A DNA stretch of 64,000 nt from Treponema primitia ZAS-2 (GCF_000214375.1 NC_015578.1:2418001-2482000), one strand, 5' to 3'; positions 4,291 through 25,077 are shown, counted from the first letter of the stretch. Made by a program: numbers and translations. Notes: generated by a model not told the origin, from the sequence alone.

Positions 4291-4353
4291 CGCTTCTGAG
4301 ACCCAATTGCGGGAAGCTGGATTTATTCATTCCTGTGAGATATTATTTATATC

Positions 4354-5417: not shown

Positions 5418-5501
5418 GACAGCATGCCCGAAAAAAATCCAGAAAGCGGAGTCAAATTGATAATTTTTCTAAAAAAAAGTAAAATTTCGTTCATCTTTTG
5501 C

Positions 5502-5540: not shown

Positions 5541-5726
5541 AATAGCGTACCCGAAAAAAAGGTACGACTTAAACTGGGTGGATCATTTTCTCCTGAATTC
5601 CCCCTATGCCGCATTGCGGTAAAGAAAACGGACGCCATTGCGTCTGACGTCTCTGTATTTAGCGCTGCCATCCGTATGCTTGGCGCCGCCGGATATGGTG
5701 TCTTCTTTTAGCAGACAGGAGGAAAA
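5541..5726 (+). other. Leader of the sigma-factor gene with two small hairpins
   Basis: This 186-bp non-coding stretch lies between operator-promoter B and the sigma gene. It contains two small hairpins: TGCCGC/GCGGTA at 5607-5621 and GACGC/GCGTC at 5631-5644. The Shine-Dalgarno sequence AGGAGG is close to the ATG at 5727. I see no known riboswitch pattern. Confidence 0.4.
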
Positions 5727-6614: not shown

Positions 6615-6639
6615 ATTTACATTACATTCACCGCATGGG

Positions 6640-6668
6640 AACCCCCAAAATTGACCATTTTGGGGGTT
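6640..6668 (+). terminator. Perfect 12-bp hairpin between sigma factor and AAA gene
   Basis: AACCCCCAAAAT (6640-6651), loop TGACC, ATTTTGGGGGTT (6657-6668): a perfect 12-bp stem. The T-run is not immediate (GTATCGTCTGTTTTT follows), so it is either a weak intrinsic terminator or attenuator, or an RNA-stability element limiting read-through into the ATPase gene. Confidence 0.6.
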
Positions 6669-6697
6669 GTATCGTCTGTTTTTACGAAGGAGACCCT

Positions 6698-8923
6698 ATG
6701 GAAGACCAGAAATACCGGAAAAGCCCCCGGCTTTTGAACGAATTTGAACAAATCGTAGCCGCTGTAGATAAACACAAGGGCATCAACGGCCCTTTCTTTA
6801 AAGAGGTGTGGCCCGCCCTGAGGGACACCGGGAAATTTTTCGATATCAGCGCCCAGGAATCGGCGCTCTTTGCCCTGATACTTGCATCCTCAGGGGAAGA
6901 ACCGGTTTCCGCAGGGGTAATTGCCAAAAGGATCAACTGCAATTATATCCAGTTTCTCAAATACATGGAGTCCTTTGAGAATCTGGAGAAAAAAGGGCTC
7001 ATCCGCCCCTACTCGGGCAACGACACTTTTGAAAGCCCTTCCCGGAATTTCAATCCGATCTACGTGATCCCCATGGATGTGATCACCGCTGTCCGGGAAG
7101 GCCGGAAATACAGGTATGAAGACTGCGAGTCGCCTGTGACCGCCAAGGACCGGGCGCTCAAAGCGCTCAAAGAGCGCGAAACTTGTAACGCAAGGCAGCC
7201 GGTAAACTCCCCCGGAACCGCAAGCCGAAGTTCCACTCCGGATCTGCTGAACAATCTGGATCAGATTAAGCAGCTCGTGGAAAAACACGGGCTGGGTCCC
7301 GAGTTTTTTAACAGTGCGAAGGAAGATCTGGACGCTGTCTGTGGGGTGCTAAAAGTTACCCCGGTCCAGGCAGCGTTGTTTGCCCTGCTGCTGGAAAAGT
7401 CGGGCGCCCCCGAGGCGTGCCTTTCGGGCATTGCCCAGGCCCTGCACTGCGGCAAGATACAGGCCCTGCGATACTCCGGCGACCTTGAAGCCCTGGAGCT
7501 TAAGCATTTAATCGTCGCCTTTGATACTGAGGATGATAATATTTTTAGTTCCCGGCCCTCGTTCCTCAAAAAGCGCCAGAGCCAGGACTCGTGTACCTAT
7601 ATTGTTCCCCGGGATGTTTTCCTGGCCCTTGAAGCCGGACGGGAATACCATTACGCTATTTACCGCGGACTCTCTCCGGAAGAATTTTTTACCGCGGCGG
7701 ACCGTATTTTATCAGCTTTTAGCAAAAGAGAATTAAGCTCCAAGCAGTTTCTTTCCGAAATAAAATACCTCTTTAGCGGTAACCCGGATATAATGTTTGT
7801 ACAAAAAATAAAATCCTGCAATTTCAGCTTCACCCTCGATATGGCGCTCCTCTATTTCTGCGCATCTCTTGTGGAAGACAATAACGAAACGCTGCGGTTT
7901 TCCCATATCCGCTTTCTTTTTGGCAGAAGAAACAGCCAGGAGGCGAAGCGCTCTTTTATGAATGGCAAAAACGATCTTTTCACATCAGAGCTCATTGAGC
8001 ATGTCTGTGACAATGGCCTGGCCGACACCGATGAATACCGCCTTACCAACAAAGCCCGGGACAGCTTTTTGGAGGATCTTGATCTGAAGGAAAATAAAAA
8101 CATCAAGGGGAACAATATCATCCATTCCGGCAGCATTGCGGAAAAGCAGCTCTACTATCCGCCAAAGGTATCTGTTCAGATTGATGAACTGGGCCGTCTT
8201 TTACAGGAAGAGCATTTTTCCGCTATTGTGAAGCGTCTCAGGGAAAGCAACATGAAAACAGGCTTTGCCTGCCTTTTTTCAGGCTCCCCGGGAACCGGCA
8301 AGACCGAAACTGCATACCAGATCGCCCGGGCCACGGGCCGGGACATTTTCTTTGTAGACATCAGCGAGACCAAAAGTATGTGGTTTGGGGAAAGCGAAAA
8401 AAAGATAAAGTCCCTGTTTACCCGTTACAACGGTATGGTCAAACAGGCTAAGCTGGCGCCGATACTGCTCTTTAACGAAGCAGACGCGATCCTGGGAAAA
8501 CGCCAGGAAATCGGCGCCGAACGGCGCGGTCCCGCCCAGACTGAAAACACCATACAGAACATCCTGCTGCAGGAGATCGAAAATCTGGATGGGGGCATTC
8601 TCATCGCCACCACCAATATGGCGGATAACTTTGACGCAGCCTTTGAACGGCGCTTCCTGTATAAAATCAAATTCGAGAAGCCGGATCTGGAGGCAAAAAC
8701 CGCCATCTGGAAAAACATACTGTCTCAGCAGGAAGACAATGAGATGGATCTGAGCGTCCTTGCGGGTCGCTTTGATTTTTCCGGCGGCCAGATAGAGAAT
8801 GTGGCCCGCAAGGCCACCGTAGCGAGCCTTATCAGGGGGAAAGCTCTTTCTTCCGCGGACATTACCGCCCTCTGCGAGGAAGAACAGCCCGGCAGGGAGA
8901 CACATCACATAGGATTTGTATAA
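6698..8923 (+). CDS. AAA+ ATPase with duplicated N-terminal domain
   Basis: The start is set at 6698, where GAAGGAG precedes ATG by 6 bp; the frame is also open 63 bp upstream, but there it reads through the hairpin. The protein has 741 residues. The C-terminal AAA+ module has Walker A SGSPGTGKT (about residue 528), Walker B LLFNEADAI (about 590, with Asn where Asp is usual), sensor IATTNM (about 636) and arginine finger FERRF (about 649). Residues about 9-143 and 179-320 are related copies of one domain. Shared features are LLN...QI near the start, QxALFALxL, an IA....C..IQ segment, LExLExK.LI, and a VP.DV..A...GR.Y.Y ending. The repeats have a winged-helix look. A degenerate third copy may occupy about 350-460. 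No function is assigned; the architecture suggests a substrate-remodelling or sensing ATPase. It follows the sigma factor by 84 bp. Confidence 0.8.
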   Translation: MEDQKYRKSPRLLNEFEQIVAAVDKHKGINGPFFKEVWPALRDTGKFFDISAQESALFALILASSGEEPVSAGVIAKRINCNYIQFLKYMESFENLEKKGLIRPYSGNDTFESPSRNFNPIYVIPMDVITAVREGRKYRYEDCESPVTAKDRALKALKERETCNARQPVNSPGTASRSSTPDLLNNLDQIKQLVEKHGLGPEFFNSAKEDLDAVCGVLKVTPVQAALFALLLEKSGAPEACLSGIAQALHCGKIQALRYSGDLEALELKHLIVAFDTEDDNIFSSRPSFLKKRQSQDSCTYIVPRDVFLALEAGREYHYAIYRGLSPEEFFTAADRILSAFSKRELSSKQFLSEIKYLFSGNPDIMFVQKIKSCNFSFTLDMALLYFCASLVEDNNETLRFSHIRFLFGRRNSQEAKRSFMNGKNDLFTSELIEHVCDNGLADTDEYRLTNKARDSFLEDLDLKENKNIKGNNIIHSGSIAEKQLYYPPKVSVQIDELGRLLQEEHFSAIVKRLRESNMKTGFACLFSGSPGTGKTETAYQIARATGRDIFFVDISETKSMWFGESEKKIKSLFTRYNGMVKQAKLAPILLFNEADAILGKRQEIGAERRGPAQTENTIQNILLQEIENLDGGILIATTNMADNFDAAFERRFLYKIKFEKPDLEAKTAIWKNILSQQEDNEMDLSVLAGRFDFSGGQIENVARKATVASLIRGKALSSADITALCEEEQPGRETHHIGFV

Positions 8924-8924
8924 G

Positions 8925-9068
8925 ATGGAAGAATCATGGATGTTCTATTGGTGGTCCGTAAAAAAGGGGCTTATCACCATCAGCCCTGTTCGCAAACCGT
9001 ACGGAGACTGGGCATGTAACCATATTGATCTTTTTGACAAAATGGTTAATCTGGAGTTTGGTAAATAA
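8925..9068 (+). CDS. Small hypothetical protein (47 aa)
   Basis: ATG at 8925, one base after the stop of the AAA gene, gives a 47-residue frame starting MEESWMFYWWSVKKGL and ending at TAA 9066-9068. It is rich in aromatic residues, with four Trp. The immediate adjacency to the ATPase suggests co-translation. No family is recognised. It could be a truncated remnant, since the following 170 bp look damaged. Confidence 0.45.
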   Translation: MEESWMFYWWSVKKGLITISPVRKPYGDWACNHIDLFDKMVNLEFGK

Positions 9069-9080
9069 GGGGGGAATGAT

Positions 9081-9239
9081 ATGGCTGACAGGCTTTCCAA
9101 AGAAAAAAATGACCTTGCATTGCGCCATACACGGAAGCTATCAGGCGTAGGCCGCATGAGGACGACTATAAAAAGCACTTGGAAGATGCAAAACAAAAAC
9201 TCAGCGAAGGAAGCAGTAACTAGGGGGAATAACCAATGA
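9081..9239 (+). pseudogene. Short ORF, possibly a frameshifted remnant
   Basis: ATG at 9081 has a GGGGGG run 7 bp upstream. The 52-codon frame starts MADRLSKEKNDLALRHT and ends by an ATGA overlap with the next gene at 9236. The second half reads poorly in this frame. In the +1 frame the same bases give a more protein-like ending (DDYKKHLEDAKQKLSEGSSN, stop at 9220-9222). This suggests a frameshift near base 9135, or that the real gene is broken. Confidence 0.35.
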
Positions 9240-9619
9240 AACTTGAAAAAGAAAGGTATTTTCAACTGTTGGAAGACGATTTTATTTATGAAATTCACAA
9301 AGACGTAATAGACAAAGTTGTAAAGGAAATTGAAAATGAAGATAGTCTATTACGTAATGCTTCCGAGAATTTCAGTTCCCCAAAGGAAATCGAGATTTCC
9401 GATACAGCATATGAAGAACTAAAAAAGCATTCTGAATTACTGAATAAGTATGAAGGGAATGATTTTAAATCCTCTTGTTCATTTGAATCGTATCGGGAGA
9501 AATATGAAAAAGAGGTACAGAAAAATTATAAGATGCGAATGATTGTAGAAGGTTTGATGGACGACTATGTAGATGATATGAGTGACAAAATAAGAGTGCT
9601 GCTGGATATATTGTTGTAA
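9236..9619 (+). CDS. Hypothetical protein, acidic and helical (127 aa)
   Basis: 127 residues. The start ATG overlaps the upstream stop, and GGGGG lies 6 bp before it. The protein is charged and helical, with no signal peptide or membrane segment, no cysteine except one and no recognised motif. It has Glu/Lys-rich helices in the first third and a C-terminal helix ending in Leu/Ile. GC content is clearly lower than in ruvA or ruvB, like the neighbours up to 11320, which fits acquisition by transfer. No function can be assigned. Confidence 0.65.
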   Translation: MKLEKERYFQLLEDDFIYEIHKDVIDKVVKEIENEDSLLRNASENFSSPKEIEISDTAYEELKKHSELLNKYEGNDFKSSCSFESYREKYEKEVQKNYKMRMIVEGLMDDYVDDMSDKIRVLLDILL

Positions 9620-9677
9620 TGAATGAGAATTGAATTACCGGGAGATCGGGTACAAACAACTTATTGGAGGTATTTAG

Positions 9678-10442
9678 TTGAACAGGATTTTTATAACCGG
9701 CGATGGGCACGGAGAAATAGATTTTACCAAATTTGATACCCTCCAAAAAACACTTGAAAAGGACAAAAAACCCCTTGATTCATCTGATATAGTAATTGGC
9801 TGCGGAGACGCAGGTATTGTCTGGTATGGCGGAAAAAACAGAGATGAGGAAAAACTTTTAAAGCGGTATGCCCAAAAAAAGGCAACTTTTCTCTGGGTAC
9901 TAGGCAACCATGAAAATTATGGCAGGATTTATACCGATGAATTTCCTGTCATAAGCCTTCCCCTGGTAAACGGGGAAGTACGGCAGGTGAGCGATAATGT
10001 ATTCTTCCTATTGAACAGCCATACATACACCATTGCCGGAAAAAGATTTCTTGTGTTTGGCGGCGGTTTAAGCGTTGATAAAGCATACCGAATACCCGGC
10101 AGAAGCTGGTGGCCCCAGGAAATACCAACCGATGAAGAATTTCATCAACTCCTTGAAATAGCAGGACATGAACGGTTTGACTATATTTTAACACATGCCG
10201 CGCCTCAAAGCTTTGTAAAAAAACTTTTTGATAAAGGGAATAAGATAAACGATCCTGTATCAAAGATGTTAGAAGAAATACTTACGGTGATAAATTATAA
10301 CGCGTGGATTTGTGGACATTATCACGAAGACAAGGTTTCGCCAAATTTAAAACTTGCGTGCCTGTATAACAGAATCATTACACTAGAATCGGTTCATCAG
10401 GAAATTTCAGAAGGCGGAATACTTCTGGAAAATGTGGATTAA
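9678..10442 (+). CDS. Calcineurin-like metallophosphoesterase
   Basis: 254 residues. The start is TTG at 9678 with GGAGG 7 bp upstream. The five metal-binding blocks of the calcineurin-like superfamily are present in order: GDGHGE (residues about 7-12), GCGDAG (about 41), LGNHENY (about 75), LTHAAPQ (about 172) and CGHYHED (about 211). Such enzymes hydrolyse phosphomonoesters or phosphodiesters, or nucleotides, with two metal ions. The substrate here is unknown. It stands in a low-GC run of unknown genes next to an ADP-ribosylglycohydrolase, so nucleotide or ADP-ribose derivatives are a possible substrate class, but that is guesswork. Confidence 0.85.
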   Translation: MNRIFITGDGHGEIDFTKFDTLQKTLEKDKKPLDSSDIVIGCGDAGIVWYGGKNRDEEKLLKRYAQKKATFLWVLGNHENYGRIYTDEFPVISLPLVNGEVRQVSDNVFFLLNSHTYTIAGKRFLVFGGGLSVDKAYRIPGRSWWPQEIPTDEEFHQLLEIAGHERFDYILTHAAPQSFVKKLFDKGNKINDPVSKMLEEILTVINYNAWICGHYHEDKVSPNLKLACLYNRIITLESVHQEISEGGILLENVD

Positions 10443-10502
10443 AACGAGCTTGAAAATACGCTATTGGCGTAATATAACACAACGGTATTTGGAGGATAAC
10501 AC

Positions 10503-10907
10503 ATGGGACATTGGGAAGACGTCGAAAGGTTTGAAGTAGCTATTGAGGGGCTCAAAAACTACCGTAAGGAAGTAAACATGAGGAGAGACCTTAATGCCCC
10601 TATGCCAAAGCTGTCAATAGAATGGTCAGATGTCTATGCGGGTACGAGGCCTTATGAAAAAGGAAGCCAGCTCAAACGCTTGATTGGTAACGTTAATCAG
10701 GCGATAGCGGATGCGTGCCGTGCATGCGGCTATAAGACTATTGATTCAATTTTCTATGATGCTCAGGGAAGAAATGCAAAAGAAAAGCCCGGGGATAAGG
10801 ATGACCCGAAAGCAGTCTTTGAATGGTACGATACGCTTACCATCGGCAAATTTAACGAATGTGTCGATACTATAATCGCTGAGCTGGGCAGGCGCCGTCA
10901 GGTATGA
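10503..10907 (+). CDS. Hypothetical protein (134 aa)
   Basis: 134 residues. GGAGG 9 bp upstream supports the start (TTGGAGGATAACAC-ATG). It is soluble, with no signal peptide, and has two Cys in ADACRACGYKTID. No family is recognised. The stop overlaps the ATG of the next gene (ATGA), so the two are probably translated together. Confidence 0.7.
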   Translation: MGHWEDVERFEVAIEGLKNYRKEVNMRRDLNAPMPKLSIEWSDVYAGTRPYEKGSQLKRLIGNVNQAIADACRACGYKTIDSIFYDAQGRNAKEKPGDKDDPKAVFEWYDTLTIGKFNECVDTIIAELGRRRQV

Positions 10908-11317
10908 AATATCTTGTTTTTATTCAAAAAACTCCCAATAAGATTTCAGAACATATTTTAAATGGATCCCTTAAAGAATTTTTGAAAGAACTTAATGATG
11001 AATCCGATAAAAATATTTTAAACCCAATATATTCTTATGAAACAGCTTGGGCAACGGATGCAGATGAACCGGATTGGTACAATGAAAATTATGATAAAAT
11101 TGTATTTAAGATGGATCTTTATAAAGTTATAAGAGAGTTGATTAGAATTGCAGATAATAATGATCTCCCACATATAGAAATTGATAATTGTAATAGTTGT
11201 TTTAATAAGGATTCCGAAATTGCTCTTCTGATAGGGCCGTTTAAAGATGATCAAATTATTACTATTGTGTCTGAAAAAGAATTTTTTGATCGAATATTTA
11301 AAAATGAGGTAAAATAA
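10904..11317 (+). CDS. Hypothetical protein (137 aa), AT-rich
   Basis: 137 residues beginning MKYLVFIQKTPNKISEHIL; the start overlaps the preceding stop by 4 bp. The base composition is among the most AT-rich in the window, with many AAT, ATT and TTT codons, unlike the flanking core genes. It is acidic with no membrane segment, no signal peptide and no recognised motif. The tight coupling to the 134-aa gene suggests that the two products act together. Confidence 0.65.
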   Translation: MKYLVFIQKTPNKISEHILNGSLKEFLKELNDESDKNILNPIYSYETAWATDADEPDWYNENYDKIVFKMDLYKVIRELIRIADNNDLPHIEIDNCNSCFNKDSEIALLIGPFKDDQIITIVSEKEFFDRIFKNEVK

Positions 11318-11363
11318 TGAGGTACGGACGTACTGTAGATTGAAAAGAAAAAGGAGATGAACC

Positions 11364-12167
11364 ATGCAAAAGCAGCAGGCAATTTTGGGCGCCATTGCGG
11401 GAGATGTTATCGGCTCTACCTACGAGTTCAGTAATGTCAAAAGTACGGATTTCGAACTGTTCACCAGGGAAACCTATTTTACCGACGACAGTGTTATGAC
11501 CATAGCCGCCATGGACGTACTGCTCAATAAATTGAATTACACCGAAACCTATCAAAAATACGGCAGGATCTATTCAAAACGGGGTTACGGCGGTAATTTC
11601 GAAGACTGGCTTTACGAAGATAATCCCCAGCCCTATAACAGTTGGGGTAATGGTTCGGCAATGCGCGCCAGTCCCATAGGCTGGTATTGTAAAAGTATCC
11701 AGGCCGTTATGGAGGAAGCAAAAAAGAGCGCGGAAGTTTCCCATAATCACCCGGAAGGAATTAAGGGCGCCCAGGCTGTTGCCGCCGCAGTCTTTTTGGC
11801 GCGCACAGGAAAAACAAAGGGGGAAATCAAGGAGTTTATTACCAAAACCTTTGACTACAATCTTGACAGAACCCTGGATGAAATACGGCCGGACTATAAA
11901 TTTGAAGTAAGCTGTCAGAAGTCGGTTCCCGAAGCCATTATTGCATTTCTGGAAAGTTCCGATTATAAAAGCGCCGTAAGGCTTGCGGTATCCATAGGCG
12001 GCGACAGCGATACTATTGCCTGCATATCGGGGGCCATAGCCGAAGCTTTTTACGGCGAGATACCGGGGGAAATTTTCGATACCGTGTCGATGATTGTGGG
12101 GCCTGATTTAATGAGGGGCGTCATTCGCCCTTTTTCGCGGAAATACGGCATTAGTGAAAAGGGGTGA
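11364..12167 (+). CDS. ADP-ribosylglycohydrolase (DraG/ARH family)
   Basis: 267 residues with a good Shine-Dalgarno (AAAAGGAGATGAACC-ATG). The two dinuclear-metal motifs of the family are intact: FTDDSVMT (about residues 39-46) and GGDSDTIA (about 212-219). The N-terminal GAIAGDVIGSTYEF and the central GSAMRASPIG are also typical. Family members remove ADP-ribose from protein side chains or hydrolyse ADP-ribose derivatives. The gene ends 8 bp before the ATG of the AddB-like nuclease, and its last codons form the Shine-Dalgarno of that gene. This ties it to the nuclease-helicase pair. Its substrate is unknown, and no ADP-ribosyltransferase is visible in the window. Confidence 0.9.
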   Translation: MQKQQAILGAIAGDVIGSTYEFSNVKSTDFELFTRETYFTDDSVMTIAAMDVLLNKLNYTETYQKYGRIYSKRGYGGNFEDWLYEDNPQPYNSWGNGSAMRASPIGWYCKSIQAVMEEAKKSAEVSHNHPEGIKGAQAVAAAVFLARTGKTKGEIKEFITKTFDYNLDRTLDEIRPDYKFEVSCQKSVPEAIIAFLESSDYKSAVRLAVSIGGDSDTIACISGAIAEAFYGEIPGEIFDTVSMIVGPDLMRGVIRPFSRKYGISEKG

Positions 12168-12175
12168 TAAACGGC

Positions 12176-14812
12176 ATGAAAATTACCTTCGGCTTGAATC
12201 AAAATAACGCGGATTGGTCAGAAAAGCAGGCAGCTTCAGGTGAAATTCACCTTGGTCCCGAAGGGATGCTGTCTTTCCTGCAAACAAAGCTTGGATTAGG
12301 CGGTACCGACTGCTCTGCTGTGGTGCGTATTGACCAATACCGGAAGCGCCTGGCAGCGGTGATTTCTGCAGGTGCAGGCGCAGCTTCCGGTGATCCGTGG
12401 TTTCAGAAATCCTTTGAACTTGATCCATGGTCTACTGCCAAACAGCTTTTGAGCTGGCGGGATGAGTTGATTCTTGCCGGATGGAACCGTGCAGCCCTTC
12501 CTGCCACTAATTCAAAGCGTTTGGCCGCATTATCAGCCATTGAGAGCAGAACCGAACCATTGGCTCAGGGCTTTGCGGATAAATTGCATGAACTAATGGA
12601 TGAACTTGAGTATCTTGATACTTCCTGTATTCAATCAATTCAGTTAGCCGAACCACTGGAACTGCTCCCCCATCTCTGGCAGCTTCTTTTCAACAAACTT
12701 GGTGAATCAGGTGTATCAATAAAAGAACCGCCGCCCCAAGGATCAATTGACTTCTCTGATGATTCACTTATTCTGTTGGAATCTGATACTGAATGGGAAG
12801 CCGCAGAGGCGCTTGCCATGTGGTTAGCCGCAGACAAAGATGCAAACAAAAACGTGAACATGATTGTTTCTGATGCATCCGGCGTATTGGGGACGGCCTT
12901 GCACCGCCTGGGTCTTCCGCGAACCGGCAGCAGGGAATCATCAAAATGGCGGGCCCATTTGCAGATCCTTCCCCTGGTGTTTGCCAACGCATGGCAGCCG
13001 ATTGAACTTGGGGCATTGGTGGCCCTGTTAACACTTCCAATCAGTCCGGTTCCATCGGATGTCAGATACTGGCTTTTGCGGGCATTGAAAGATGAAGCCG
13101 GAGTCAAGGGCAAAGAATGGGACCATGCATTGGAAGAAATCAAAAAACAATATGCTGAACCCAAGGATCCAAAATACAAAGCGAAAACAGAGAAAGAAGT
13201 TGACGAAATACTCAAAAAGATTGATGAAATGCTGGTTTCGGATCGTTACCCTTCCGGGGGTATTCCCGAAGGCGCCATCATAGAACGCTGCAACTGGATA
13301 ATCAAAAGTTTAACCCCCCAATGTAAAGACAATGATTTTCTCAATAAACCAATAGGCCATGCAATGGCATTGAAACAATTGGTAACCGGGCGCAAGACAA
13401 TAGGCCGGATCGAATTGGAGCGGATGATCGATTTACTGGTAACTGAGGAATCTCTTGATATTAAAGCCGAGGCTAGTCCATGGAATATTTCAACCCACCC
13501 CGGGGGAGTAACTGCTTCACGCCCTGTTCTTATCTGGTGGAACTTTATCAATCAGCCAGGGCCCGCAGCAAGCTATTGGAATCCGGCGGAACTGGAAGCA
13601 TTAAACAAAGCCGGTATATACCCGGATGAGAACGGTATGGCCCAGAAACGTGAAGTTTTTGCATGGAAAAACGCTTTTCTAAAAGCAGAGGAAAAGGTCA
13701 TCCTGATCCGCCCAAAAAAGCTGCGGGGCGAGGATACTACAGGGCATCCATTATGGGATATGATTACATCATCTGCGGAGAAGAAATGGGATGAAAAAAC
13801 AGTAAAAATTTTTATTCAAAACAGTACCGATGTATTCTTCACCAATGAAAAATGGGAACTTTTTGGCAGAAAAGGTACGACAATAGGGGCGCCGCAGTTT
13901 GTATTACCCCAGGGGCAGAATGAATACTCTATCTCCAAAAAACTTATTACGATTCCAAAATCAACTTCCTACAGTGATATGAGCACCCTTATTGGCTGCC
14001 CCTTAAAGTGGGTGATGGAAAAAGTCGTCAAAATTCGGCCATCCGATGCTGCGTCAATCCCTGACATAAATCAAAGCATTGGAACACTATGCCATTCTAT
14101 TATTCAGGATATCTATGCGCGGGGAACTACGTTGCAAGTTGCACTCTCCAAACGTTCCTGGACCCCCGCAGATGCTCAAAAAGAAGCTGAACGGCTTTTT
14201 GACAAAAAAGTCGAATCCATGGTTATTGAACTCTGCGCAGAAGGCAAGAAAATCGAAAGAGCCCGTTACCGGCAGGACATAGGCAGAGCTGTTTATGGTT
14301 TGGGTGAATTATTGCAGAAGGAAGATTTCACAGTTGAGGAGGCTGAAGCCAAATTCTCCGGCACCCTTTGTGAAGTGCCTTTTAACGGATTTGTGGATCT
14401 GCTCCTCCGGGATAAAAAAAATAACCCCCTTGTGATTGATTTAAAATGGACCCGGTCAGGAAAATACAAACGCCAGGAAATTAAAGATGGGCTTGATTTG
14501 CAGTTGGCATCTTATGCTTGGCTTATAGAAGAAAAAGAACCGGGCGCAGAAATAAATGCCGGTTATTTTATCATGCCCGAAAATAGCTGGCTGCCGGATA
14601 ATCAAAAGAATCTGCGGCAGGTCTTTCAAAATGCAGCAAAAGCATGGCAAGGGGAATTAAATATACTGGCGGAGGGCCTTGTTGCGAAGGGGCATGATAT
14701 AAATGACGAAAATGATGATGAAAGCTCCACCGCACCCTTTAAGCTAAGTGCGCCCTGCGGTTTTTGCCAGTATAAAGGTTTATGTGAAATAGACGAAAGG
14801 AACGCACAATGA
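12176..14812 (+). CDS. AddB-like nuclease with predicted 4Fe-4S staple
   Basis: 878 residues from ATG 12176. That start is chosen because AGGGGTGAT (12160-12168) is a near-perfect Shine-Dalgarno 7 bp upstream; a GTG at 12164 is possible. The N-terminal 550 residues lack Walker motifs, as expected for the degenerate helicase fold of AddB. The C-terminal PD-(D/E)XK nuclease has GTLCHSII (catalytic-site His, about 640), NGFVDLLL (Asp), VIDLKW (Asp-x-Lys) and QLASY. Four Cys fit the AddB iron-sulfur clasp: one in GCPLKW (about 608) and three in CGFCQYKGLC (C-x2-C-x5-C, about 860). AddAB resects double-strand breaks and also degrades phage DNA. Its ATGA overlap with the AddA-like gene shows coupling. 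Sequence similarity to true AddB looks remote, so a separate AddB-like lineage is possible. Confidence 0.8.
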   Translation: MKITFGLNQNNADWSEKQAASGEIHLGPEGMLSFLQTKLGLGGTDCSAVVRIDQYRKRLAAVISAGAGAASGDPWFQKSFELDPWSTAKQLLSWRDELILAGWNRAALPATNSKRLAALSAIESRTEPLAQGFADKLHELMDELEYLDTSCIQSIQLAEPLELLPHLWQLLFNKLGESGVSIKEPPPQGSIDFSDDSLILLESDTEWEAAEALAMWLAADKDANKNVNMIVSDASGVLGTALHRLGLPRTGSRESSKWRAHLQILPLVFANAWQPIELGALVALLTLPISPVPSDVRYWLLRALKDEAGVKGKEWDHALEEIKKQYAEPKDPKYKAKTEKEVDEILKKIDEMLVSDRYPSGGIPEGAIIERCNWIIKSLTPQCKDNDFLNKPIGHAMALKQLVTGRKTIGRIELERMIDLLVTEESLDIKAEASPWNISTHPGGVTASRPVLIWWNFINQPGPAASYWNPAELEALNKAGIYPDENGMAQKREVFAWKNAFLKAEEKVILIRPKKLRGEDTTGHPLWDMITSSAEKKWDEKTVKIFIQNSTDVFFTNEKWELFGRKGTTIGAPQFVLPQGQNEYSISKKLITIPKSTSYSDMSTLIGCPLKWVMEKVVKIRPSDAASIPDINQSIGTLCHSIIQDIYARGTTLQVALSKRSWTPADAQKEAERLFDKKVESMVIELCAEGKKIERARYRQDIGRAVYGLGELLQKEDFTVEEAEAKFSGTLCEVPFNGFVDLLLRDKKNNPLVIDLKWTRSGKYKRQEIKDGLDLQLASYAWLIEEKEPGAEINAGYFIMPENSWLPDNQKNLRQVFQNAAKAWQGELNILAEGLVAKGHDINDENDDESSTAPFKLSAPCGFCQYKGLCEIDERNAQ

Positions 14813-17800
14813 GCACTATCAATATTATCAATGCCAGCGCCGGTTCCGGAAAGACCTATTGGCTTACCAAATTGGCCGGTGAGAATGTAGTGAACGGCAT
14901 AAGTGCGAATCGCCTTTTTGCCACAACCTTTACAAAAAAAGCGGCCGCAGAGCTGGTAGAACGCCTGCGCCAGCGGCTTCTGTCTGATGGCAAGGAAGAA
15001 GAGGTAAATTTACTATCCGATGGGTTTGTCGGAACGGTAAACAGTGTGTGCGCCCGTTTGCTCACCGAATACGCCATTGACGCCGGTTTATCCCCCGCCC
15101 TTGACGTTATACCTGAAGAGGACACGGGTAAAATTTTTAACATGGCCGTAGAAGAAGCTATCGCCGAACAGGCAGACAAGCTGGAACCGGTTGCCCGGCG
15201 GCTAAGCCGGTATGGCGCTTACCGCCAAGGCGATTGGCGCAATGATGTAAAGGACATAGCCAAGATGGCCCGGGATAACCGCTTGGATTCAGGCGCCATT
15301 GAACAGAGCGCCAAAAAATCATGGGAATCCTTTAGTACCCTCTTGCCTAATACCATTCAGTGCGATACAGCGGCCCTGGTACAGGCCATCCAATCGGCGA
15401 TTGATGCACTCAGCAAATTAGCAAAACTGTCAAAGGGCTCACAAGTCGCATTGGAGGCACTGGAAGAAATTAAAAAAACTGCATCCGATCCAGAAAGGCT
15501 GCCCTGGAGTACCTGGGCAAAACTTGCAAAATTATCAACCCCAAAGGACGGTAAAGACGCGGTAGCTGAAGTTCAGGGACTGGCCGGCGAGTGGTTAAAA
15601 AATCGCCGTTTCCATGAGGATGTTAAAACCATGATTGACGGAGCCTTTTACTGCGCCGCCCTGGCGGTTGAACATTTTCAGACCTACAAGAAGCAGCATG
15701 GCTTGATGGATTTTACCGATCAGGAATCCGGTGTACTGGATTTGTTTGAAGGAACAGAAAGCCAGTTTTTTCAGGATTCCCTAAAAAATCGGCTTTCATT
15801 GCTATTGGTCGACGAATTTCAGGACACCAGCCCTATACAACTGGCAATTTTTCTTGAACTTAACCAATTATGCGGCTCTTCATTCTGGGTTGGGGACCCC
15901 AAACAATCTATTTATGGATTTCGGGGCTCAGACCCTGTTTTAATGAATGTCGCCGCGGATCACTTTAGTAAAATTGCGGATCCCCGCCTCAATAAACCCC
16001 TGTCAGATTCATGGCGTTCACAAAAACTGCTCGTTGATTTTTCAAACGCTGTTTTTAAGAATGTGTTCCATGAAATGCCGGAAAACAAGGTTACCCTGAA
16101 TATTCCCTCTCAACGGGAAAAAGATGCCAAAGGTGGGAATATCGAAGCATGGCTTTTGGATGCCCAAAATAAATCGGATACTGCCATTCGCCTTGCTATT
16201 GCAATCCAAACGCTTTTGGGTGACACCGGCGCCAAACCCGGAGACATCGCTGTTCTGTGCCGTAAAAACGATGATTGCGATGACCTTGCAAATGCCCTGG
16301 AGAGTATCGGGCTCCGGGCATCCACGGCCCGGGGATCACTTGTAAAAACACCGGCTTGCCGTTTAGTTTTAGCGGCCCTGCGTTATCTTGCGGATAAAAA
16401 AGATACCCTCGCGATGATTGAAGTGATTAACTTCCTGGGAAATCATGGGGAATACAAAGACTGGCTTGCAAAACTGGTGAATGACAGGGATGCTTACCTG
16501 GATGAATTAAAATCAAACCCGGTATTCCAAAACCTGGATGCCCGGCGTGACGAATTACGCCGCTTAACCCCCTTAGAGGCCCTTGAGTATGCCATTGATG
16601 CCTCCGGTGTATTGGAAGCGGCAGCGTCCTGGCCGAACACCCCATTGGCGCTGGCAAACCTTGATAAACTGCGCCTTAGCTGTGTGAAATATCTGGATTT
16701 GTGCAGGGCCCGGCATGATTCCGGAAGCCTCTCGGGATATTTGTCCTATTTAACTGAGAATGATATTAAAGAATCAGAAGGCTCTGATGACCAGGCTATT
16801 CAAGTGCTCACCTATCATAAAGCCAAAGGCCTGGAATGGAAGGTAGTCATTCTCTTTAACCTTGATGACGGGCTTAAAGGCAGCGCATTCAATCTTTCTG
16901 CCAAAACAGAAGGAGCATTTGATCCGCAAAATCCTCTGAATAACAGAATACTCCATTTCTGGCCCGACCCCTTGCCGGGAAATCAAACGTCAGATGAGTT
17001 GGAATCCTTACTGCTCGATTGCCCGGAACAACAGGAAGCAATAGACCGGGAGATTAAAGAAAGGCAACGCTTGTTATATGTTGGTTTTACCAGGGCCCGA
17101 GACAGCCTGATTCTTGCGGTGCACAGAAAAACGACCAATGCCGGCGCCAAATTGATGACCGCATGGCTTGATGAATTGACCGATGCCGACCATGAGCCGC
17201 TTATCACCCTGCCGGTGAGTGCCACCGGCAAGCACCTCCTCAATATTGGTGGAACACAAATCCCCATAACAATCAAGGAATATACCGAAAAAACGCAAGC
17301 CCTACAGTTGACACGGCCAGAGTTGAGCAAACGCCGTCCCCTGGTTCCTGCCGACCTGCCGCTGTACCCGCCAGCCCGATACTCCCCAAGCGCTTTGGAA
17401 TGGGAAGCAGAAGCACTGTCTAAAATCACAGTGAGTGAACGGTACAGTTTAGGAAATAGAATAGCAGTAAAAGGAACGCCGGATTATAACCTTTTCGGCA
17501 CCGCAGTTCACAACTTTCTTGCGGTAGAACAGGGAAAACGAAACGCAGCGGAATGGGAAAATACGGCACATCGGCTATTGGAACGCTATGGCATCCTCTC
17601 TGTTATACATCCTGCCGACATGGTTGAAATACATAAAAGAGTAACTCAATTTATAACGAATACCTATCCGGGGGCAAAGATTCGCCGTGAATGGCCTATC
17701 AGCCTTCGTGAAAGGGATAACCGCCTAATGCAGGGCTTTATTGATATGCTCCTTGAGCTGGATAATGGCTTTGTAATCCTTGATCACAAGACCTTTCCGG

Positions 17801-17967
17801 GCGCTAATGCTGAGGAAAAAGCCCGCGAGTATGCCCCCCAGCTTGCCGCTTACCGCCGTGCAGTTGAGGCTGCGGCTATGGAAACCGGGACAGGGAAGAA
17901 GGTGCTGGCTGCCTTGATACATATGCCGGTTATCGGTAAGATATATGAGGTTGAAAATACTCGTTAA
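14809..17967 (+). CDS. AddA-like UvrD-family helicase-nuclease
   Basis: 1052 residues. It starts at an ATGA overlap with the AddB-like gene. Superfamily 1 helicase motifs are complete: Walker A NASAGSGKTYW (about residues 8-18), motif Ia TFTKKAAAEL, motif II LLLVDEFQDTSP (about 330), motif III VGDPKQSIYGFRG, motif V TYHKAKGLEW (about 667) and motif VI LLYVGFTRARD (about 757). The C-terminal RecB/AddA-type nuclease has GTAVHNFL (about 897), GFIDMLL (about 976), LDHKTF (about 991) and QLAAY (about 1011). Both subunits therefore carry nuclease domains, as in AddAB. It is shorter than typical AddA (about 1200). Either this is the organism's own AddAB or a defence-island relative. Its position beside the ADP-ribosylglycohydrolase favours an accessory role, but this is not settled. 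Confidence 0.88.
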   Translation: MSTINIINASAGSGKTYWLTKLAGENVVNGISANRLFATTFTKKAAAELVERLRQRLLSDGKEEEVNLLSDGFVGTVNSVCARLLTEYAIDAGLSPALDVIPEEDTGKIFNMAVEEAIAEQADKLEPVARRLSRYGAYRQGDWRNDVKDIAKMARDNRLDSGAIEQSAKKSWESFSTLLPNTIQCDTAALVQAIQSAIDALSKLAKLSKGSQVALEALEEIKKTASDPERLPWSTWAKLAKLSTPKDGKDAVAEVQGLAGEWLKNRRFHEDVKTMIDGAFYCAALAVEHFQTYKKQHGLMDFTDQESGVLDLFEGTESQFFQDSLKNRLSLLLVDEFQDTSPIQLAIFLELNQLCGSSFWVGDPKQSIYGFRGSDPVLMNVAADHFSKIADPRLNKPLSDSWRSQKLLVDFSNAVFKNVFHEMPENKVTLNIPSQREKDAKGGNIEAWLLDAQNKSDTAIRLAIAIQTLLGDTGAKPGDIAVLCRKNDDCDDLANALESIGLRASTARGSLVKTPACRLVLAALRYLADKKDTLAMIEVINFLGNHGEYKDWLAKLVNDRDAYLDELKSNPVFQNLDARRDELRRLTPLEALEYAIDASGVLEAAASWPNTPLALANLDKLRLSCVKYLDLCRARHDSGSLSGYLSYLTENDIKESEGSDDQAIQVLTYHKAKGLEWKVVILFNLDDGLKGSAFNLSAKTEGAFDPQNPLNNRILHFWPDPLPGNQTSDELESLLLDCPEQQEAIDREIKERQRLLYVGFTRARDSLILAVHRKTTNAGAKLMTAWLDELTDADHEPLITLPVSATGKHLLNIGGTQIPITIKEYTEKTQALQLTRPELSKRRPLVPADLPLYPPARYSPSALEWEAEALSKITVSERYSLGNRIAVKGTPDYNLFGTAVHNFLAVEQGKRNAAEWENTAHRLLERYGILSVIHPADMVEIHKRVTQFITNTYPGAKIRREWPISLRERDNRLMQGFIDMLLELDNGFVILDHKTFPGANAEEKAREYAPQLAAYRRAVEAAAMETGTGKKVLAALIHMPVIGKIYEVENTR

Positions 17968-17973
17968 AACATT

Positions 17974-18018
17974 TGCAAATTACACGCTGAAAAACACGCA
18001 ATTTGCATATGATATAAT
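17974..18018 (+). promoter_or_regulatory. Promoter of the DUF262 module with 8-bp inverted repeat
   Basis: TGCAAATT (17974-17981) and AATTTGCA (18000-18007) form perfect 8-bp arms 18 bp apart. Five bases further on is TATAAT (18013-18018), 34 bp before the ATG at 18052. The arms straddle the -35 region, so a dimeric repressor is likely. This repeat differs from the operator at 5502 and 22059, indicating a separately controlled unit. Confidence 0.6.
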
Positions 18019-18051
18019 ACGGGAAGAAATAACATTACAGGAGAAAAAACA

Positions 18052-18645
18052 ATGGCAATCGTAGATGTTCCTGAAATTTCTAAAAACTACAAGACCAAAC
18101 AATTTGGAGCTTCTGATATTAGATGGGTAAAAAATGTAAATGATGAAAAAACAAGTAGTGCGTATTTACGTCCGGACAAAAGGGTTATTATAAATCCGAA
18201 TGGTGTGTTTTTTTGCCTTCAGGTAAATACACCAAGCTTTAAAAAATCCTTGAATTCAGTCCACTTTGGAGAGCTTATTCTCCTTTATCAATATTTAAAT
18301 AATCAAACCGTTAAATGTTTCACCCATTTGGTTACCCCTATCGCCGACGAGGTAATTCAAAATCCTTATTCAGATGACGGCGGGCCGGGAAGATGGGTGA
18401 AAGTAATTGGGATGACTAATAATCAAGCAAAAAATAGCATTCCTATAACAGATACAGAATGGCGAACTATAGGATTCAAATTTGGTGTCCATCGTGATTT
18501 AAGTTATCAGCAAGGAATAGCTTTTGAAATTAATCCTGATAAACAATTATCCGAACAACAATTCACCAATCTACAAAATAATATTTGGAGCAAATTTCAA
18601 CGTCCTGCGTTTAATGTCAATATAACGGATATACCTGTAAAGTAA
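18052..18645 (+). CDS. Hypothetical protein, possible EVE/PUA-like fold (197 aa)
   Basis: 197 residues with an AGGAG Shine-Dalgarno 8 bp before ATG. It is AT-rich like the two genes that follow. No family is recognised with confidence. The segment from about residue 45 to 150 (FCLQVNTPSF, GELILLYQYL, PGRWVKVIGM) has the strand order and the W-V pattern seen in EVE/YTH/PUA-like domains, which read modified bases and often accompany restriction enzymes. That resemblance is weak and only by eye. It is first in a unit of three genes with the two DUF262 proteins, separated by 70 bp, and has its own promoter with an inverted repeat. Confidence 0.65.
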   Translation: MAIVDVPEISKNYKTKQFGASDIRWVKNVNDEKTSSAYLRPDKRVIINPNGVFFCLQVNTPSFKKSLNSVHFGELILLYQYLNNQTVKCFTHLVTPIADEVIQNPYSDDGGPGRWVKVIGMTNNQAKNSIPITDTEWRTIGFKFGVHRDLSYQQGIAFEINPDKQLSEQQFTNLQNNIWSKFQRPAFNVNITDIPVK

Positions 18646-18715
18646 TTGCGAGCCAGGTAAGCAACGGACCTGACAAGCTTTGAACTAAAACCAGAGGAAT
18701 GGGGGTAATATTTAT

Positions 18716-20041
18716 ATGGAAACAAAAACAGAAGTTACAGTCAGCATTAAATCAATAGATGAGATTTTACAAGAACGTAATTTAAAAATACCTGATTATC
18801 AAAGACCATATAAATGGGAACGTAGTCATATTCGCAACCTTTTTTATGATATCAGAGAAACGATTAGCAAAGGTATCAATGAATACAGAATTGGTTCAAT
18901 AATTCTGCACGCCAAAGACAAGAACAATCTTGAAATTGTTGATGGACAGCAGCGACTATTGTCAATATCGTTATTATATTTTTATCTTAATGAAAAAAAA
19001 TCTTTACCACAGGGAGTAGCCAACCTTTTGAGTAATCAGTTTGTTGAAATTTCGCTTTTACATGCAAAGGAAAATTTCAATGAATGGAAATCATTGTGTG
19101 ATTTAATTAAAGCCAATGAACAAAAGCATCTTTTTTCCTACATTAAAAATAATTGTAAGGTTTCAGTAATAGAAATGCCTGGCAATAATCTATCCGAAGC
19201 GTTCCAGCTTTTTGATTCTCAAAACAACCGGGGCAAATCACTTGATCCGCATGATTTATTAAAGGCTTACCATCTAAGATCAATAAATCGCCCGAGTGAA
19301 CAGACAATTAAAAAGTGGGAACTATTTATAAATGATGAAATTTTTCCTCTAAAAGAATTATTTAATAAGCATTTATTCAGGATCAGACACTGGTCAAACG
19401 GCGATACAGGAATAACCAGGAAAAAGCATGGCAGTGAGTTAAGGTTTAGCGAACGGTTTATTGACGATTTTAAAGGGGTTTCTCTTGTCAATGAATCATA
19501 TCCTTATCTATACCTATATGAGAAACTAAAAGAAAATAATATTGACTTCCCAAATTCATTAAATATGCCTATTATTGACGGTGAAGCATTTTTCAGGTAT
19601 ATTGAATATGCGTACAGTTTGTTTTATGAAAATTTTTATAAACGCAATAAACTTTGTGATAAATTAAGCGATAACATAAGAAACCATATTTTTGAAAGCG
19701 GCAATAATAAATTTACAAGGAATATTAACCTTTATGTCAATTTACTCACATTGTTCATCGATAGATTCGGTGAACAATATGTTGACAAAGAGGTTTCCGA
19801 AATAACTTTTGTTTGGGCATTTTACCCCAGGGTAATAGCAAAATTAATATATGATTCTACAATCGCCAACTATGCATCCGGAGGGATGTTCCAGCGCAAG
19901 CCAGGATATCAAAAGATGTTTCAGGTTCTTATGTCGGCGGTAACCCCGCGAGGGTTTGTAGCAAATATTAATACAGATATCTTAAATAATTTTACTGCTG
20001 ATGGAATTATTCAAAAGCTTATGGAAGGAGACAAAAAATGA
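18716..20041 (+). CDS. DUF262 protein (GmrS-like), no HNH domain
   Basis: 441 residues. The N-terminal DUF262 (ParB-like nucleotide-hydrolysing) domain shows IPDYQRPYKWERSHI at about residues 21-35 and the signature EIVDGQQRLLSISLLY at about 75-90. A later FQLFDSQNNRGKSLDPHDLL block (about 160-180) is also typical. The rest is helical and ends without the H-x2-P HNH (DUF1524) motif, so this protein has only the GmrS half. GmrSD enzymes are NTP-dependent type IV nucleases that cut modified phage DNA. It overlaps the next gene by 4 bp (ATGA). Low GC suggests transfer. Confidence 0.85.
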   Translation: METKTEVTVSIKSIDEILQERNLKIPDYQRPYKWERSHIRNLFYDIRETISKGINEYRIGSIILHAKDKNNLEIVDGQQRLLSISLLYFYLNEKKSLPQGVANLLSNQFVEISLLHAKENFNEWKSLCDLIKANEQKHLFSYIKNNCKVSVIEMPGNNLSEAFQLFDSQNNRGKSLDPHDLLKAYHLRSINRPSEQTIKKWELFINDEIFPLKELFNKHLFRIRHWSNGDTGITRKKHGSELRFSERFIDDFKGVSLVNESYPYLYLYEKLKENNIDFPNSLNMPIIDGEAFFRYIEYAYSLFYENFYKRNKLCDKLSDNIRNHIFESGNNKFTRNINLYVNLLTLFIDRFGEQYVDKEVSEITFVWAFYPRVIAKLIYDSTIANYASGGMFQRKPGYQKMFQVLMSAVTPRGFVANINTDILNNFTADGIIQKLMEGDKK

Positions 20042-22005
20042 AAAATCCTTTATCCATATTTGAGTTACTGTGTAATGACAGCATAAAATACAGTATTCCA
20101 CTTTACCAAAGAAATTTTTCCTGGACAGATCGTGAGATATCGCAGCTACTAATTGATATTCTCGATTCCATAAAAGAAGAAAGGAAGCAATATTATATAG
20201 GCACATTAGTAATTTGTAAAAATGGTGATAAATTTTCAATTATTGATGGCCAACAAAGATTTACTGCTATATTATTAATTTCTTTGGCAATACAAAATAA
20301 ATATTCTAATATTGAAAAATTTGTTGAAAAAATCAATCTTTCCTTTGAAGCAAGGCAAAAATCAGATTTAACGATTAAAAAGCTACTTGTCAATGAAATA
20401 GTTAACGATACCAAAGATAACGAGTTATTAAGAGGTTATCAGGATACATTGGATGCATTGAAAGAATTTGTCGGAAAAGATGATTACGTCAATATCAATA
20501 TGAAAGATTTTTATAATTATTTGTTTCATAAAGTGACAATATTTATTAACGAAATGCCGGAAAATACGAATGTAAATTTGTATTTTGAGCGATTCAACTC
20601 CCGGGGCGAACAATTAGAATCCCATGAAATAATCAAAGCCGAGCTTATGCAAAAGCTTGTTGACGAAAAGACGGACATGTTGACCATTCAAAAATTTGCC
20701 AAAATTTGGGACGCTTGTTCAGAGCTTGAAACTCCGTGCATAAAATTCTTTAGAAAGAAAATAAAGGGCGCCGATCCCAATGACGAACGCGAAAAAGTAT
20801 TCAATTGTCAATGGGATGACTATACGCCTGGCAGCAACAGCTGGCGCTATGGTTATGATATTGCTGATGTTTACAAAAATATTCACGTAAATAATGAGAA
20901 TAAAAAATCCATATTGAGTGTACTGGAAAACGGCATCGACCCTCATGCTATCGATACGGTAAATGATGGGAATGAATCAGCAACAAACGATGAAACAGAC
21001 AGATACCGATGTATCATAAACTTTGATACCTTATTATATTATGTCTTATATATTTCTGATGGCAAGGAAGTGGACGAAGTCCAACTTGATGATAAAAAAT
21101 TACAAAAATCATTTAAAGTTTCTTCGCGAAACAGTGAATGGATATTAAAATTTGGTGAAAACCTTCTAAAGATTAAATTCATTTTTGACAGTTTTATTAT
21201 CCGAACTTCATTAGAAAATACGCATGGCTTAAAAGAAGGACAATGGTTTTTACGTAAGGCGCATAGAATCGATAAAAACGAAAAAACAAGGGGACATCTT
21301 TATGTTCAAACCCAATTTGATAAAATTTCTTTTGACGAACGAAATGATGAAATAATAATGTTACAGAGTATGTTTGCTGTAACCTTTACGGCTTACAAAG
21401 ATACGAGGTGGCTTTTTTCAACAGTGAAATACTTATATGAAAATGCCAAAAATTTGAATAGCCCTGCTTTTTCACATAATTTCCATGGATTTCTGGAAAA
21501 ATTATCAAAACAATATGCAAAAAAAAGAATTTGCAATGAAGCTGGGCAGACAGACAAAAGCAAACTTAGGTATAACAATGGGGTTCCGATATTTGCATTT
21601 AACTTGATGGATTATGTTTTGTGGAAAAAAAGAAGCAACTTAAGACCAATGTACAAAGAAGTTAATTTTAATGATTTTGAATTTACATACAGGCGTTCGA
21701 TTGAACATTGGTATCCGCAAAATCCGGACGAAAATGTTGGTTACAACAAAATGAATGATGACTTATTGCATTCATTTGGCAACTTGTGTAATGTCGTAGC
21801 AAGTCAAAATTCTGCTTTTGGAAATCTCTATCCCCCGGCGAAACTTAATCAATGGCAGCATATATTCGCGTCACAGAGTTTGAAACTTCAAATAATGGCG
21901 ATACTAACAAAAAAATTGAATGGATGGGATGAAAGTAAAACCAATGAAATTAGAAATGCTGAAACCGAAATGATTACATGGTTGAATCAATATATGCAAA
22001 GTTAG
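20038..22005 (+). CDS. DUF262-DUF1524 protein (GmrSD-like restriction nuclease)
   Basis: 655 residues. GGAG lies 7 bp upstream of the ATG, which overlaps the previous stop. The N-terminal DUF262 has IPLYQRNFSWTDREI (about residues 20-34), FSIIDGQQRFTAILLI (about 63-78) and FERFNSRGEQLESHEII (about 180-196). The C-terminal DUF1524 HNH-type nuclease has SIEHWYPQNP (about 560-570) followed by SFGNLCNVVASQNSAFGN, the usual His-x-x-Pro and Asn-rich block. In GmrSD-family enzymes the N-terminal domain hydrolyses NTP and the HNH domain cuts DNA, usually DNA with modified bases. Pairing a full GmrSD-like protein with a nuclease-less DUF262 partner is the notable feature. Likely phage defence, inferred. 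Confidence 0.87.
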   Translation: MKNPLSIFELLCNDSIKYSIPLYQRNFSWTDREISQLLIDILDSIKEERKQYYIGTLVICKNGDKFSIIDGQQRFTAILLISLAIQNKYSNIEKFVEKINLSFEARQKSDLTIKKLLVNEIVNDTKDNELLRGYQDTLDALKEFVGKDDYVNINMKDFYNYLFHKVTIFINEMPENTNVNLYFERFNSRGEQLESHEIIKAELMQKLVDEKTDMLTIQKFAKIWDACSELETPCIKFFRKKIKGADPNDEREKVFNCQWDDYTPGSNSWRYGYDIADVYKNIHVNNENKKSILSVLENGIDPHAIDTVNDGNESATNDETDRYRCIINFDTLLYYVLYISDGKEVDEVQLDDKKLQKSFKVSSRNSEWILKFGENLLKIKFIFDSFIIRTSLENTHGLKEGQWFLRKAHRIDKNEKTRGHLYVQTQFDKISFDERNDEIIMLQSMFAVTFTAYKDTRWLFSTVKYLYENAKNLNSPAFSHNFHGFLEKLSKQYAKKRICNEAGQTDKSKLRYNNGVPIFAFNLMDYVLWKKRSNLRPMYKEVNFNDFEFTYRRSIEHWYPQNPDENVGYNKMNDDLLHSFGNLCNVVASQNSAFGNLYPPAKLNQWQHIFASQSLKLQIMAILTKKLNGWDESKTNEIRNAETEMITWLNQYMQS

Positions 22006-24436: not shown

Positions 24437-24772
24437 CTACTTTTCTAAAAATGCAATCAAAAACTCTATGTCCTCTTGTGTCAATTTTCCTATAGGTTTG
24501 GCCTTGCTTACAACGTCCGGAGGTAACTTTAGCAGTCTAACTGTATCAACATAAGATTGCTTTTCAAGTCCTGCCAGTTTCCAATCGACTATTTTGTAAT
24601 ATTTTGCCTTTATCGTTTCGCTTTTATTAGCGTATTGTGTTGTGATCCCAAAACCGTATGCGGCGGATGCAGTAGGTCCGTTGTTATCGCCAGTCGAAAT
24701 CATCAAAACCGGGCGGCGTTTCCCTCCGGTTTTCCAGGAAATATACGCAACAAAAATATCGAAGGGCTTCAT
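24437..24772 (-). CDS. MazF/PemK-like toxin
   Basis: 111 residues. Features of the PemK/MazF-like fold are GKRRPVLMIS (about residues 17-26), the YKIVDWKLAGLEKQSYVDT block (about 59-77) and the following LLKLPPDVV. Members cut RNA at short sequences and are held inactive by an adjacent antitoxin. The ATG shares one base with the antitoxin stop (TAATG), so antitoxin and toxin are translated in order from one message. Together with the RelB/DinJ-type antitoxin it forms a mixed pair. The exact RNA target is unknown. Confidence 0.8.
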   Translation of the reverse strand: MKPFDIFVAYISWKTGGKRRPVLMISTGDNNGPTASAAYGFGITTQYANKSETIKAKYYKIVDWKLAGLEKQSYVDTVRLLKLPPDVVSKAKPIGKLTQEDIEFLIAFLEK

Positions 24773-25077
24773 TAGCCATTTACTCCCCAGTCGTAAAGTT
24801 CGGGGGTTTTCTCTTTATCGATAATGATATTGCCCTTACCGTCTGATTCAAGTTCAACTATTTGCATTTTCCTGTTTTGTAAGGCTTTGATTAGTTTTTC
24901 GTCGGGGGTCGGTAAAGGTTCGGGCTGAAAGGGTAAACGGCGTTCTACAATAATTTTACGATAGAACATCTCGATTGCTGTCGTCTGGTCAATCCCCATC
25001 CTTGAAAGTAAATCAACGGCCTGAGCCTTTATGCTCTTATCAATCTTGACGTTTACGTTTGACTTTGCGTTAGTCAT
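24772..25077 (-). CDS. RelB/DinJ-family antitoxin
   Basis: 101 residues. The N-terminal ribbon-helix-helix (VNVKIDKSIKAQAVDLLSRM, about residues 8-27) and GIDQTTAIEMFYRKII are typical of RelB/DinJ proteins, which bind their own promoter as dimers. The C-terminal part, which would wrap the toxin, is charged. The start has AAGGAGAT 5 bp upstream. The promoter is at 25098-25126. Autoregulation is expected from the family. Confidence 0.85.
   Translation of the reverse strand: MTNAKSNVNVKIDKSIKAQAVDLLSRMGIDQTTAIEMFYRKIIVERRLPFQPEPLPTPDEKLIKALQNRKMQIVELESDGKGNIIIDKEKTPELYDWGVNG

What the first reader, a model, noticed from the sequence alone, without database searches (positions are those of the whole stretch)
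17974..22005. Three-gene unit: possible base reader, DUF262-only protein and full DUF262-DUF1524 nuclease
Seen: an inverted-repeat promoter; a 197-aa protein that may have an EVE/PUA-like core; a GmrS-only protein (DUF262 DGQQR motif, no HNH); then a GmrSD-like protein (DGQQR plus EHWYPQ HNH), coupled by ATGA. All are AT-rich. Known: GmrSD-family nucleases cut modified phage DNA, and EVE-type readers accompany modification-dependent restriction. Inference: a two-ATPase modification-dependent restriction system in which the nuclease-less DUF262 paralogue regulates or heterodimerises with the nuclease. I cannot match it to a named system.
Basis: partly seen in the sequence, partly recalled or inferred. 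Interest (0 to 1): 0.62.

Follow-up and report, generated by a model that had tools for sequence, protein, structure and literature searches.

The report
TgvAB-type restriction pair beside stray reader
In a termite-gut-type spirochaete genome, two adjacent genes form an already described two-protein enzyme (TgvAB type) that cuts phage DNA carrying modified bases; the small gene in front probably makes a modified-base reader, but it travels separately and is not shown to belong to the system.

Summary
All three ORFs exist where stated. Genes 2 and 3 (DUF262+DUF7834 without nuclease; DUF262+DUF1524 with nuclease; ATGA overlap) form a known system: the two-protein, modification-dependent type IV restriction enzyme TgvAB, described in Vibrio cholerae in 2024 (PMC11411939). 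The same two-gene architecture occurs in many spirochaetes and on plasmids, often beside type I or other R-M genes, and the trees of the two proteins match closely (r = 0.93). Gene 1 has no domain hit by sequence. The three-gene unit is not supported. Gene 1's relatives in other genomes never lie next to DUF262 genes. One genome of the same genus has both gene 1 and the pair on different contigs, and none of 26 other pair loci examined carries gene 1. Gene 1 rides a roughly 2 kb cassette in two relatives. The three genes do share a low GC here (32-35%), so they may have arrived together. Verdict: a new member of a known kind with a probably independent EVE-like neighbour. A functional link is possible but unlikely.

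The parts
17974..18018 (+). 8-bp inverted repeat (17974-17981/18000-18007) followed by an extended -10-like TGATATAAT (18010-18018); possible promoter of gene 1
   Evidence: 41 of 2000 shuffles reach the arm length; not listed by the sigma-70 scan; not conserved upstream of relatives; inference only
18052..18645 (+). gene 1: 197-aa EVE/YTH-like (PUA superfamily) protein, stand-alone; probably an independent mobile gene
18716..20041 (+). gene 2: TgvA-type protein, DUF262 (DGQQR) + DUF7834, no nuclease domain
20038..22005 (+). gene 3: TgvB-type protein, DUF262 + DUF1524 His-Me (HNH) nuclease; overlaps gene 2 by ATGA
12164..17967 (+). context: accessory AddB-like (PD-(D/E)XK) and AddA-like (UvrD helicase + PD-(D/E)XK) gene pair just upstream; not part of the unit by composition

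Best explanation
Genes 2 and 3 are a TgvAB-type two-protein, modification-dependent (type IV) restriction enzyme. Both proteins bind and hydrolyse NTP through DUF262, sense hypermodified (for example sugar-hydroxymethylated) cytosine in incoming phage DNA as a complex, and the DUF1524 His-Me nuclease of gene 3 cuts it. Gene 1 is an EVE/YTH-like base reader encoded by an independently moving gene that happens to sit upstream. Shown here: domains, motifs, gene coupling, recurrence and co-evolution of the pair, non-recurrence of gene 1, fold resemblance of gene 1. Taken from the Vibrio literature: need for both proteins, substrate, need for DGQQR and His-Me residues. Inferred: that this copy is active and has similar targets.
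For: Pfam architecture of genes 2 and 3 is identical to that of a type I R-M-embedded pair on a Vibrio plasmid and matches the description of TgvA/TgvB. Gene 3 is 29% identical over its length to that Vibrio partner (1e-66), and gene 2 is 32% identical over 93% (1e-47). DGQQR is invariant in 24 of 24 B proteins, EHxxPQ and GNL...N are kept in 21-23 of 24, and DGQQR is kept in 23-24 of 24 A proteins at every position. A and B are adjacent, mostly overlapping or within 20 nt, in the window and 26 other loci, a few of them truncated or broken. The A and B distance matrices correlate at r = 0.927 (0 of 5000 permutations). About 1005 plasmids carry a gene 2 relative, while tblastn with three members of the gene 1 family found none on plasmids. 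Gene 1 relatives stand alone in G486, G522, G523, G282 and G699 or are fused to a McrA-like HNH in G351. G522 has both gene 1 and a pair, on different contigs. In the same-genus genomes compared, DNA similarity to the window covers gene 1 only.
Against: No activity data exist for any spirochaete copy. The V. cholerae sequences themselves could not be fetched, so Vibrio plasmid relatives stood in. The three genes share the same low GC and GC3 and gene 1 lies 70 nt from gene 2, which fits joint arrival and possibly joint transcription. The gene 1 family is small (few relatives, mostly from one family), so non-recurrence is a weaker test than it would be for a common gene.
Confidence: 0.8

Rival explanations
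1. All three genes form one system: the EVE-like protein is a third, separate specificity subunit that delivers or widens base recognition for the TgvAB-type nuclease.
For: Same strand, 70-nt gap, matching low GC and GC3. EVE-like fold. A relative of gene 1 is fused to a McrA-like HNH nuclease. Rare EVE-GmrSD fusions and stand-alone EVE genes paired with a restriction system have been reported (PMC7641849).
Against: No gene 1 relative next to any DUF262 pair in 26 other loci. Gene 1 and the pair are unlinked in G522, and G524 has the pair without gene 1. TgvAB in Vibrio needs no third protein.
Confidence: 0.12
2. Gene 3 alone is a classical single-chain GmrSD enzyme and gene 2 is a degenerate duplicate or a regulator that is not needed.
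For: Gene 3 has the complete DUF262-DUF1524 architecture of single-chain GmrSD.
Against: Gene 2 keeps its DGQQR motif and its own conserved C-terminal domain DUF7834, shared across distant pairs. The A and B trees match. In TgvAB both proteins are needed.
Confidence: 0.07

Closest known systems
TgvAB of Vibrio cholerae VPI-2 (PMC11411939)
   Same: Two adjacent genes in the order A then B; A is DUF262 without DUF1524; B is DUF262 + DUF1524 with DGQQR and His-Me residues.
   Different: The window pair lies downstream of an AddAB-like pair and an EVE-like gene, not inside a type I R-M operon. Sequence is about 30% identical to Vibrio-type relatives. Activity not shown.
GrwAB of WASA V. cholerae (PMC12137116)
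   Same: Two-protein DUF262 system with one DUF1524 partner.
   Different: The nuclease gene comes first in Grw, and GrwB has a long multi-domain C-terminus distinct from TgvA; gene 2 here is 441 aa with DUF7834.
Single-chain GmrSD / BrxU / SspE
   Same: Gene 3 has their DUF262-DUF1524 architecture; weak sequence match to SspE.
   Different: Those act without a DUF262-only partner gene.
EVE-HNH endonuclease VcaM4I (PMC7897488)
   Same: The gene 1 relative in L068 has an EVE-like N-terminal part (VIA-align Z 7.8 to 6yex over 121 residues) and a McrA-like HNH C-terminal part.
   Different: Gene 1 itself has no nuclease domain.

Membership tests
TgvAB | A protein with N-terminal DUF262 (DGQQR) and no DUF1524 | tested here: met
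   gene 2 has GmrSD_N + DUF7834, DGQQR present, no EHxxP
TgvAB | B protein with DUF262 plus DUF1524 His-Me nuclease residues | tested here: met
   GmrSD_C 5.4e-8; EHWYPQ, GNL and following N conserved
TgvAB | A and B adjacent, A first | tested here: met
   ATGA overlap, as in most of the other pairs
TgvAB | Direct sequence similarity to VC1767/VC1766 | not tested
   V. cholerae sequences not held; the type I R-M-embedded Vibrio aerogenes pair stood in: 32% and 29%
TgvAB | Location inside a type I R-M operon (namesake feature, not required of homologues) | tested here: not met
   Neighbours are AddB/AddA-like genes, gene 1 and an SUMF-like gene. Not essential: most tgvAB homologues reported lie outside such operons. 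Same-genus pairs in G522 and G524 do lie by HsdM-type genes.
TgvAB | Both proteins required for protection against phages with sugar-modified hydroxymethylcytosine | not testable with these tools
   needs phage plating
GrwAB | Nuclease gene first and partner with a long multi-domain C-terminus | tested here: not met
   nuclease gene is second here; gene 2 is 441 aa with DUF7834
EVE domain family PF01878 (gene 1) | Match to the Pfam EVE profile | tested here: not met
   no match; hhalign to EVE members gives 4.6% probability, barely above column shuffles (max 3.4)
EVE/YTH (PUA-like) fold (gene 1) | PUA-like fold closest to EVE or YTH structures | tested here: met
   top Foldseek and VIA-align rows are EVE and YTH (best Foldseek E 1.7e-3; Z up to 7.9) but from a low-confidence model (pLDDT 52.6); the model of the HNH-fused relative gives Z up to 9.7
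EVE-HNH type IV endonuclease | HNH nuclease in the same chain as the EVE domain | tested here: not met
   gene 1 has no HNH; its relative L068 does

The most novel reading that the evidence does not exclude
A three-protein variant of TgvAB in which a separate EVE/YTH-like reader adds base specificity to the two-DUF262 nuclease, seen so far in one strain.
Probability: 0.12. Interest if true: 0.5.

Novelty: new member of a known kind. Interest (0 to 1): 0.22.

Why it matters
It adds treponemes to the known range of two-protein GmrSD-like restriction and gives natural pairs, with DUF7834 as the constant C-terminal domain of the A protein in those scanned, for asking why a second DUF262 protein is needed, a question left open in the Vibrio papers. 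The small EVE-like family, with one member fused to a McrA-like HNH, is a candidate new branch of modified-base readers. As a three-gene system it would matter more, but the evidence is against it.

Tried and rejected
Three-gene system: rejected as the default because gene 1's relatives do not recur beside DUF262 genes. Plasmids and phages for gene 1: no match. Viral contigs for gene 1: none; first genome-contig scan: none. Pfam, PADLOC and NCBIfam for gene 1: only chance-level hits. PDB by sequence for gene 1: nothing. Profile-profile link to EVE: not significant. Viral fold library: no clear match. Considered whether AddAB-like genes and TgvAB form one unit, since Aliarcobacter pACIB has the pair nested between PD-(D/E)XK and UvrD genes: those proteins are only 21% identical or barely alignable to the window's, and composition differs. 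An empty-site comparison in G525 failed because its contig ends inside the AddA-like gene. Flanking repeats of the block: none convincing. The paper of Gomez and Waters on TgvAB is not held and was used only as quoted in the other papers.

Full report
The window is positions 2,418,001-2,482,000 of a complete 4,059,867-bp single-contig spirochaete genome. From memory, that size fits Treponema primitia ZAS-2; this was not checked. Relatives named in the collections are Treponema and Spirochaetia records.

Observation. The three ORFs are present as described. Gene 2 has an N-terminal GmrSD_N (DUF262) domain and a C-terminal DUF7834; gene 3 has GmrSD_N and GmrSD_C (DUF1524); gene 1 has no significant domain in Pfam, PADLOC or NCBIfam. 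Genes 2 and 3 overlap by ATGA. All three have GC of 32-35% and GC3 of 27-31%, against 46-49% GC in the AddAB-like genes just upstream and 56-60% downstream. The upstream inverted repeat exists but is only mildly unusual (41 of 2000 shuffles) and is not conserved upstream of gene 1's relatives.

What genes 2 and 3 are. A paper on V. cholerae VPI-2 (PMC11411939) describes TgvAB: TgvA with DUF262 only, TgvB with DUF262 plus DUF1524, neither active alone, active against Tevenvirinae, and dependent on the His-Me residues of DUF1524; it reports 1,341 homologous operons. [quoted passage not shown] In spirochaetes, 101 of 393 genomes have a match to gene 2, and the strongest hits are followed by a second DUF262 gene. 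On plasmids 1005 records have a match. In the plasmid records opened, the pair lies behind HsdR-HsdM-HsdS (Vibrio aerogenes), between HsdS and HsdR (E. coli), behind a methyltransferase and helicase (Citrobacter), or between PD-(D/E)XK and UvrD genes (Aliarcobacter). The Vibrio aerogenes pair has the same Pfam architecture as the window pair, DUF7834 included.

I collected the window pair and 26 other pair loci (some truncated or broken). In the intact ones the A protein has DGQQR and lacks an EHxxP nuclease motif of the B type, the B protein has DGQQR and EHxxP, and the genes touch or nearly touch (two A proteins contain a QHxxP string, L034 and L088, the latter without a DUF1524 match). In 24 usable pairs DGQQR is invariant in B, EHxxPQ is kept in 23, and the A and B tree distances correlate at 0.927, with 0 of 5000 permutations reaching it. 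Shared host ancestry contributes to such a correlation, but it fits two proteins that evolve as partners.

What gene 1 is. Searches with gene 1 and its profile find homologues only in spirochaetes in the data searched. AlphaFold2 with five sequences gave a low-confidence model (pLDDT 52.6, pTM 0.58), yet its best matches are consistently EVE (human THYN1, 2eve, PH1033) and YTH domains. A second model, of a 288-aa relative (L068), has a better N-terminal part. It matches EVE/YTH structures at Z up to 9.7, including the EVE-HNH endonuclease VcaM4I at Z 7.8 over 121 residues. That relative's C-terminal part is an HNH domain (PF01844) similar to E. coli McrA in the PDB (6.9e-6). By sequence profile the link to EVE is not significant. 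So an EVE-like reader is likely by fold and by the fused relative, but homology is not proven.

Do the three genes belong together? In every other genome examined, gene 1's relatives lie away from DUF262 genes, within the contig lengths available. G522, of the same genus, has a gene 1 relative on contig 127 and a pair beside HsdM/HsdS-type genes on contig 63; G524 has a pair and no gene 1 match. DNA similarity between the window and the same-genus gene 1 loci covers gene 1 alone. In G522 and G523, gene 1 and an upstream leucine-rich-repeat-type ORF form a roughly 2.2 kb block in two different genomic surroundings, so gene 1 looks like a mobile cassette. A profile search of all ORFs in the pair loci finds gene 1 only in the window. 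What remains for a link is proximity and shared base composition. Gene 1's relatives elsewhere are also AT-richer than their surroundings, which weakens the composition argument.

Mechanism. Following TgvAB, BrxU and SspE, the most likely mechanism is sensing of hypermodified phage bases by the two DUF262 proteins with NTP binding and hydrolysis, and cleavage by the DUF1524 domain of gene 3. The steps specific to this copy are inferred. Gene 1 may read modified bases, but for what purpose is open.

Conclusion. A new member of the TgvAB-type family, with a probably coincidental EVE-like neighbour; ordinary as a defence locus.

Noticed in passing
window 12164-17967: Accessory AddB-like and AddA-like helicase-nuclease pair, distinct from another RecB/AddA-like frame elsewhere in the genome. 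Relatives on rhizobial, Methylocystis and Lysinibacillus plasmids lie near SNF2, PLD/helicase or AAA genes, suggesting a defence role.
   Followed up: partly
L091 (Aliarcobacter cibarius pACIB) 3660-12329: A TgvAB-type pair is nested between a PD-(D/E)XK nuclease gene and a UvrD-helicase gene.
   Followed up: partly
L068 5968-6834 (L002): A 288-aa protein in a Treponema MAG joins the gene 1-like EVE domain to a McrA-like HNH: a candidate new EVE-HNH type IV endonuclease.
   Followed up: partly
L062 5268-7513 and L063 4280-6590: About 2.2 kb block (leucine-rich-repeat-type ORF plus gene 1 relative) 93-95% identical in two same-genus genomes but in different surroundings, ending just after gene 1: a small mobile cassette.
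   Followed up: partly
L069 5983-6432: Gene 1 relative cut short next to a transposase-like ORF.
   Followed up: no
L087 3083-6492 and L054 3765-4994: Shorter gene 1 relatives in two treponemes of another genus lie near the same kind of amidohydrolase-like gene.
   Followed up: no
window 9678-12167: Metallophosphoesterase and ADP-ribosylglycohydrolase genes in the lower-GC stretch before the AddAB-like pair; a related ADP-ribosylglycohydrolase also precedes that pair in G525.
   Followed up: no
window 24437-25077: MazF-like toxin and RelB/DinJ-like antitoxin ORFs on the minus strand just before ruvB (judged by eye).
   Followed up: no
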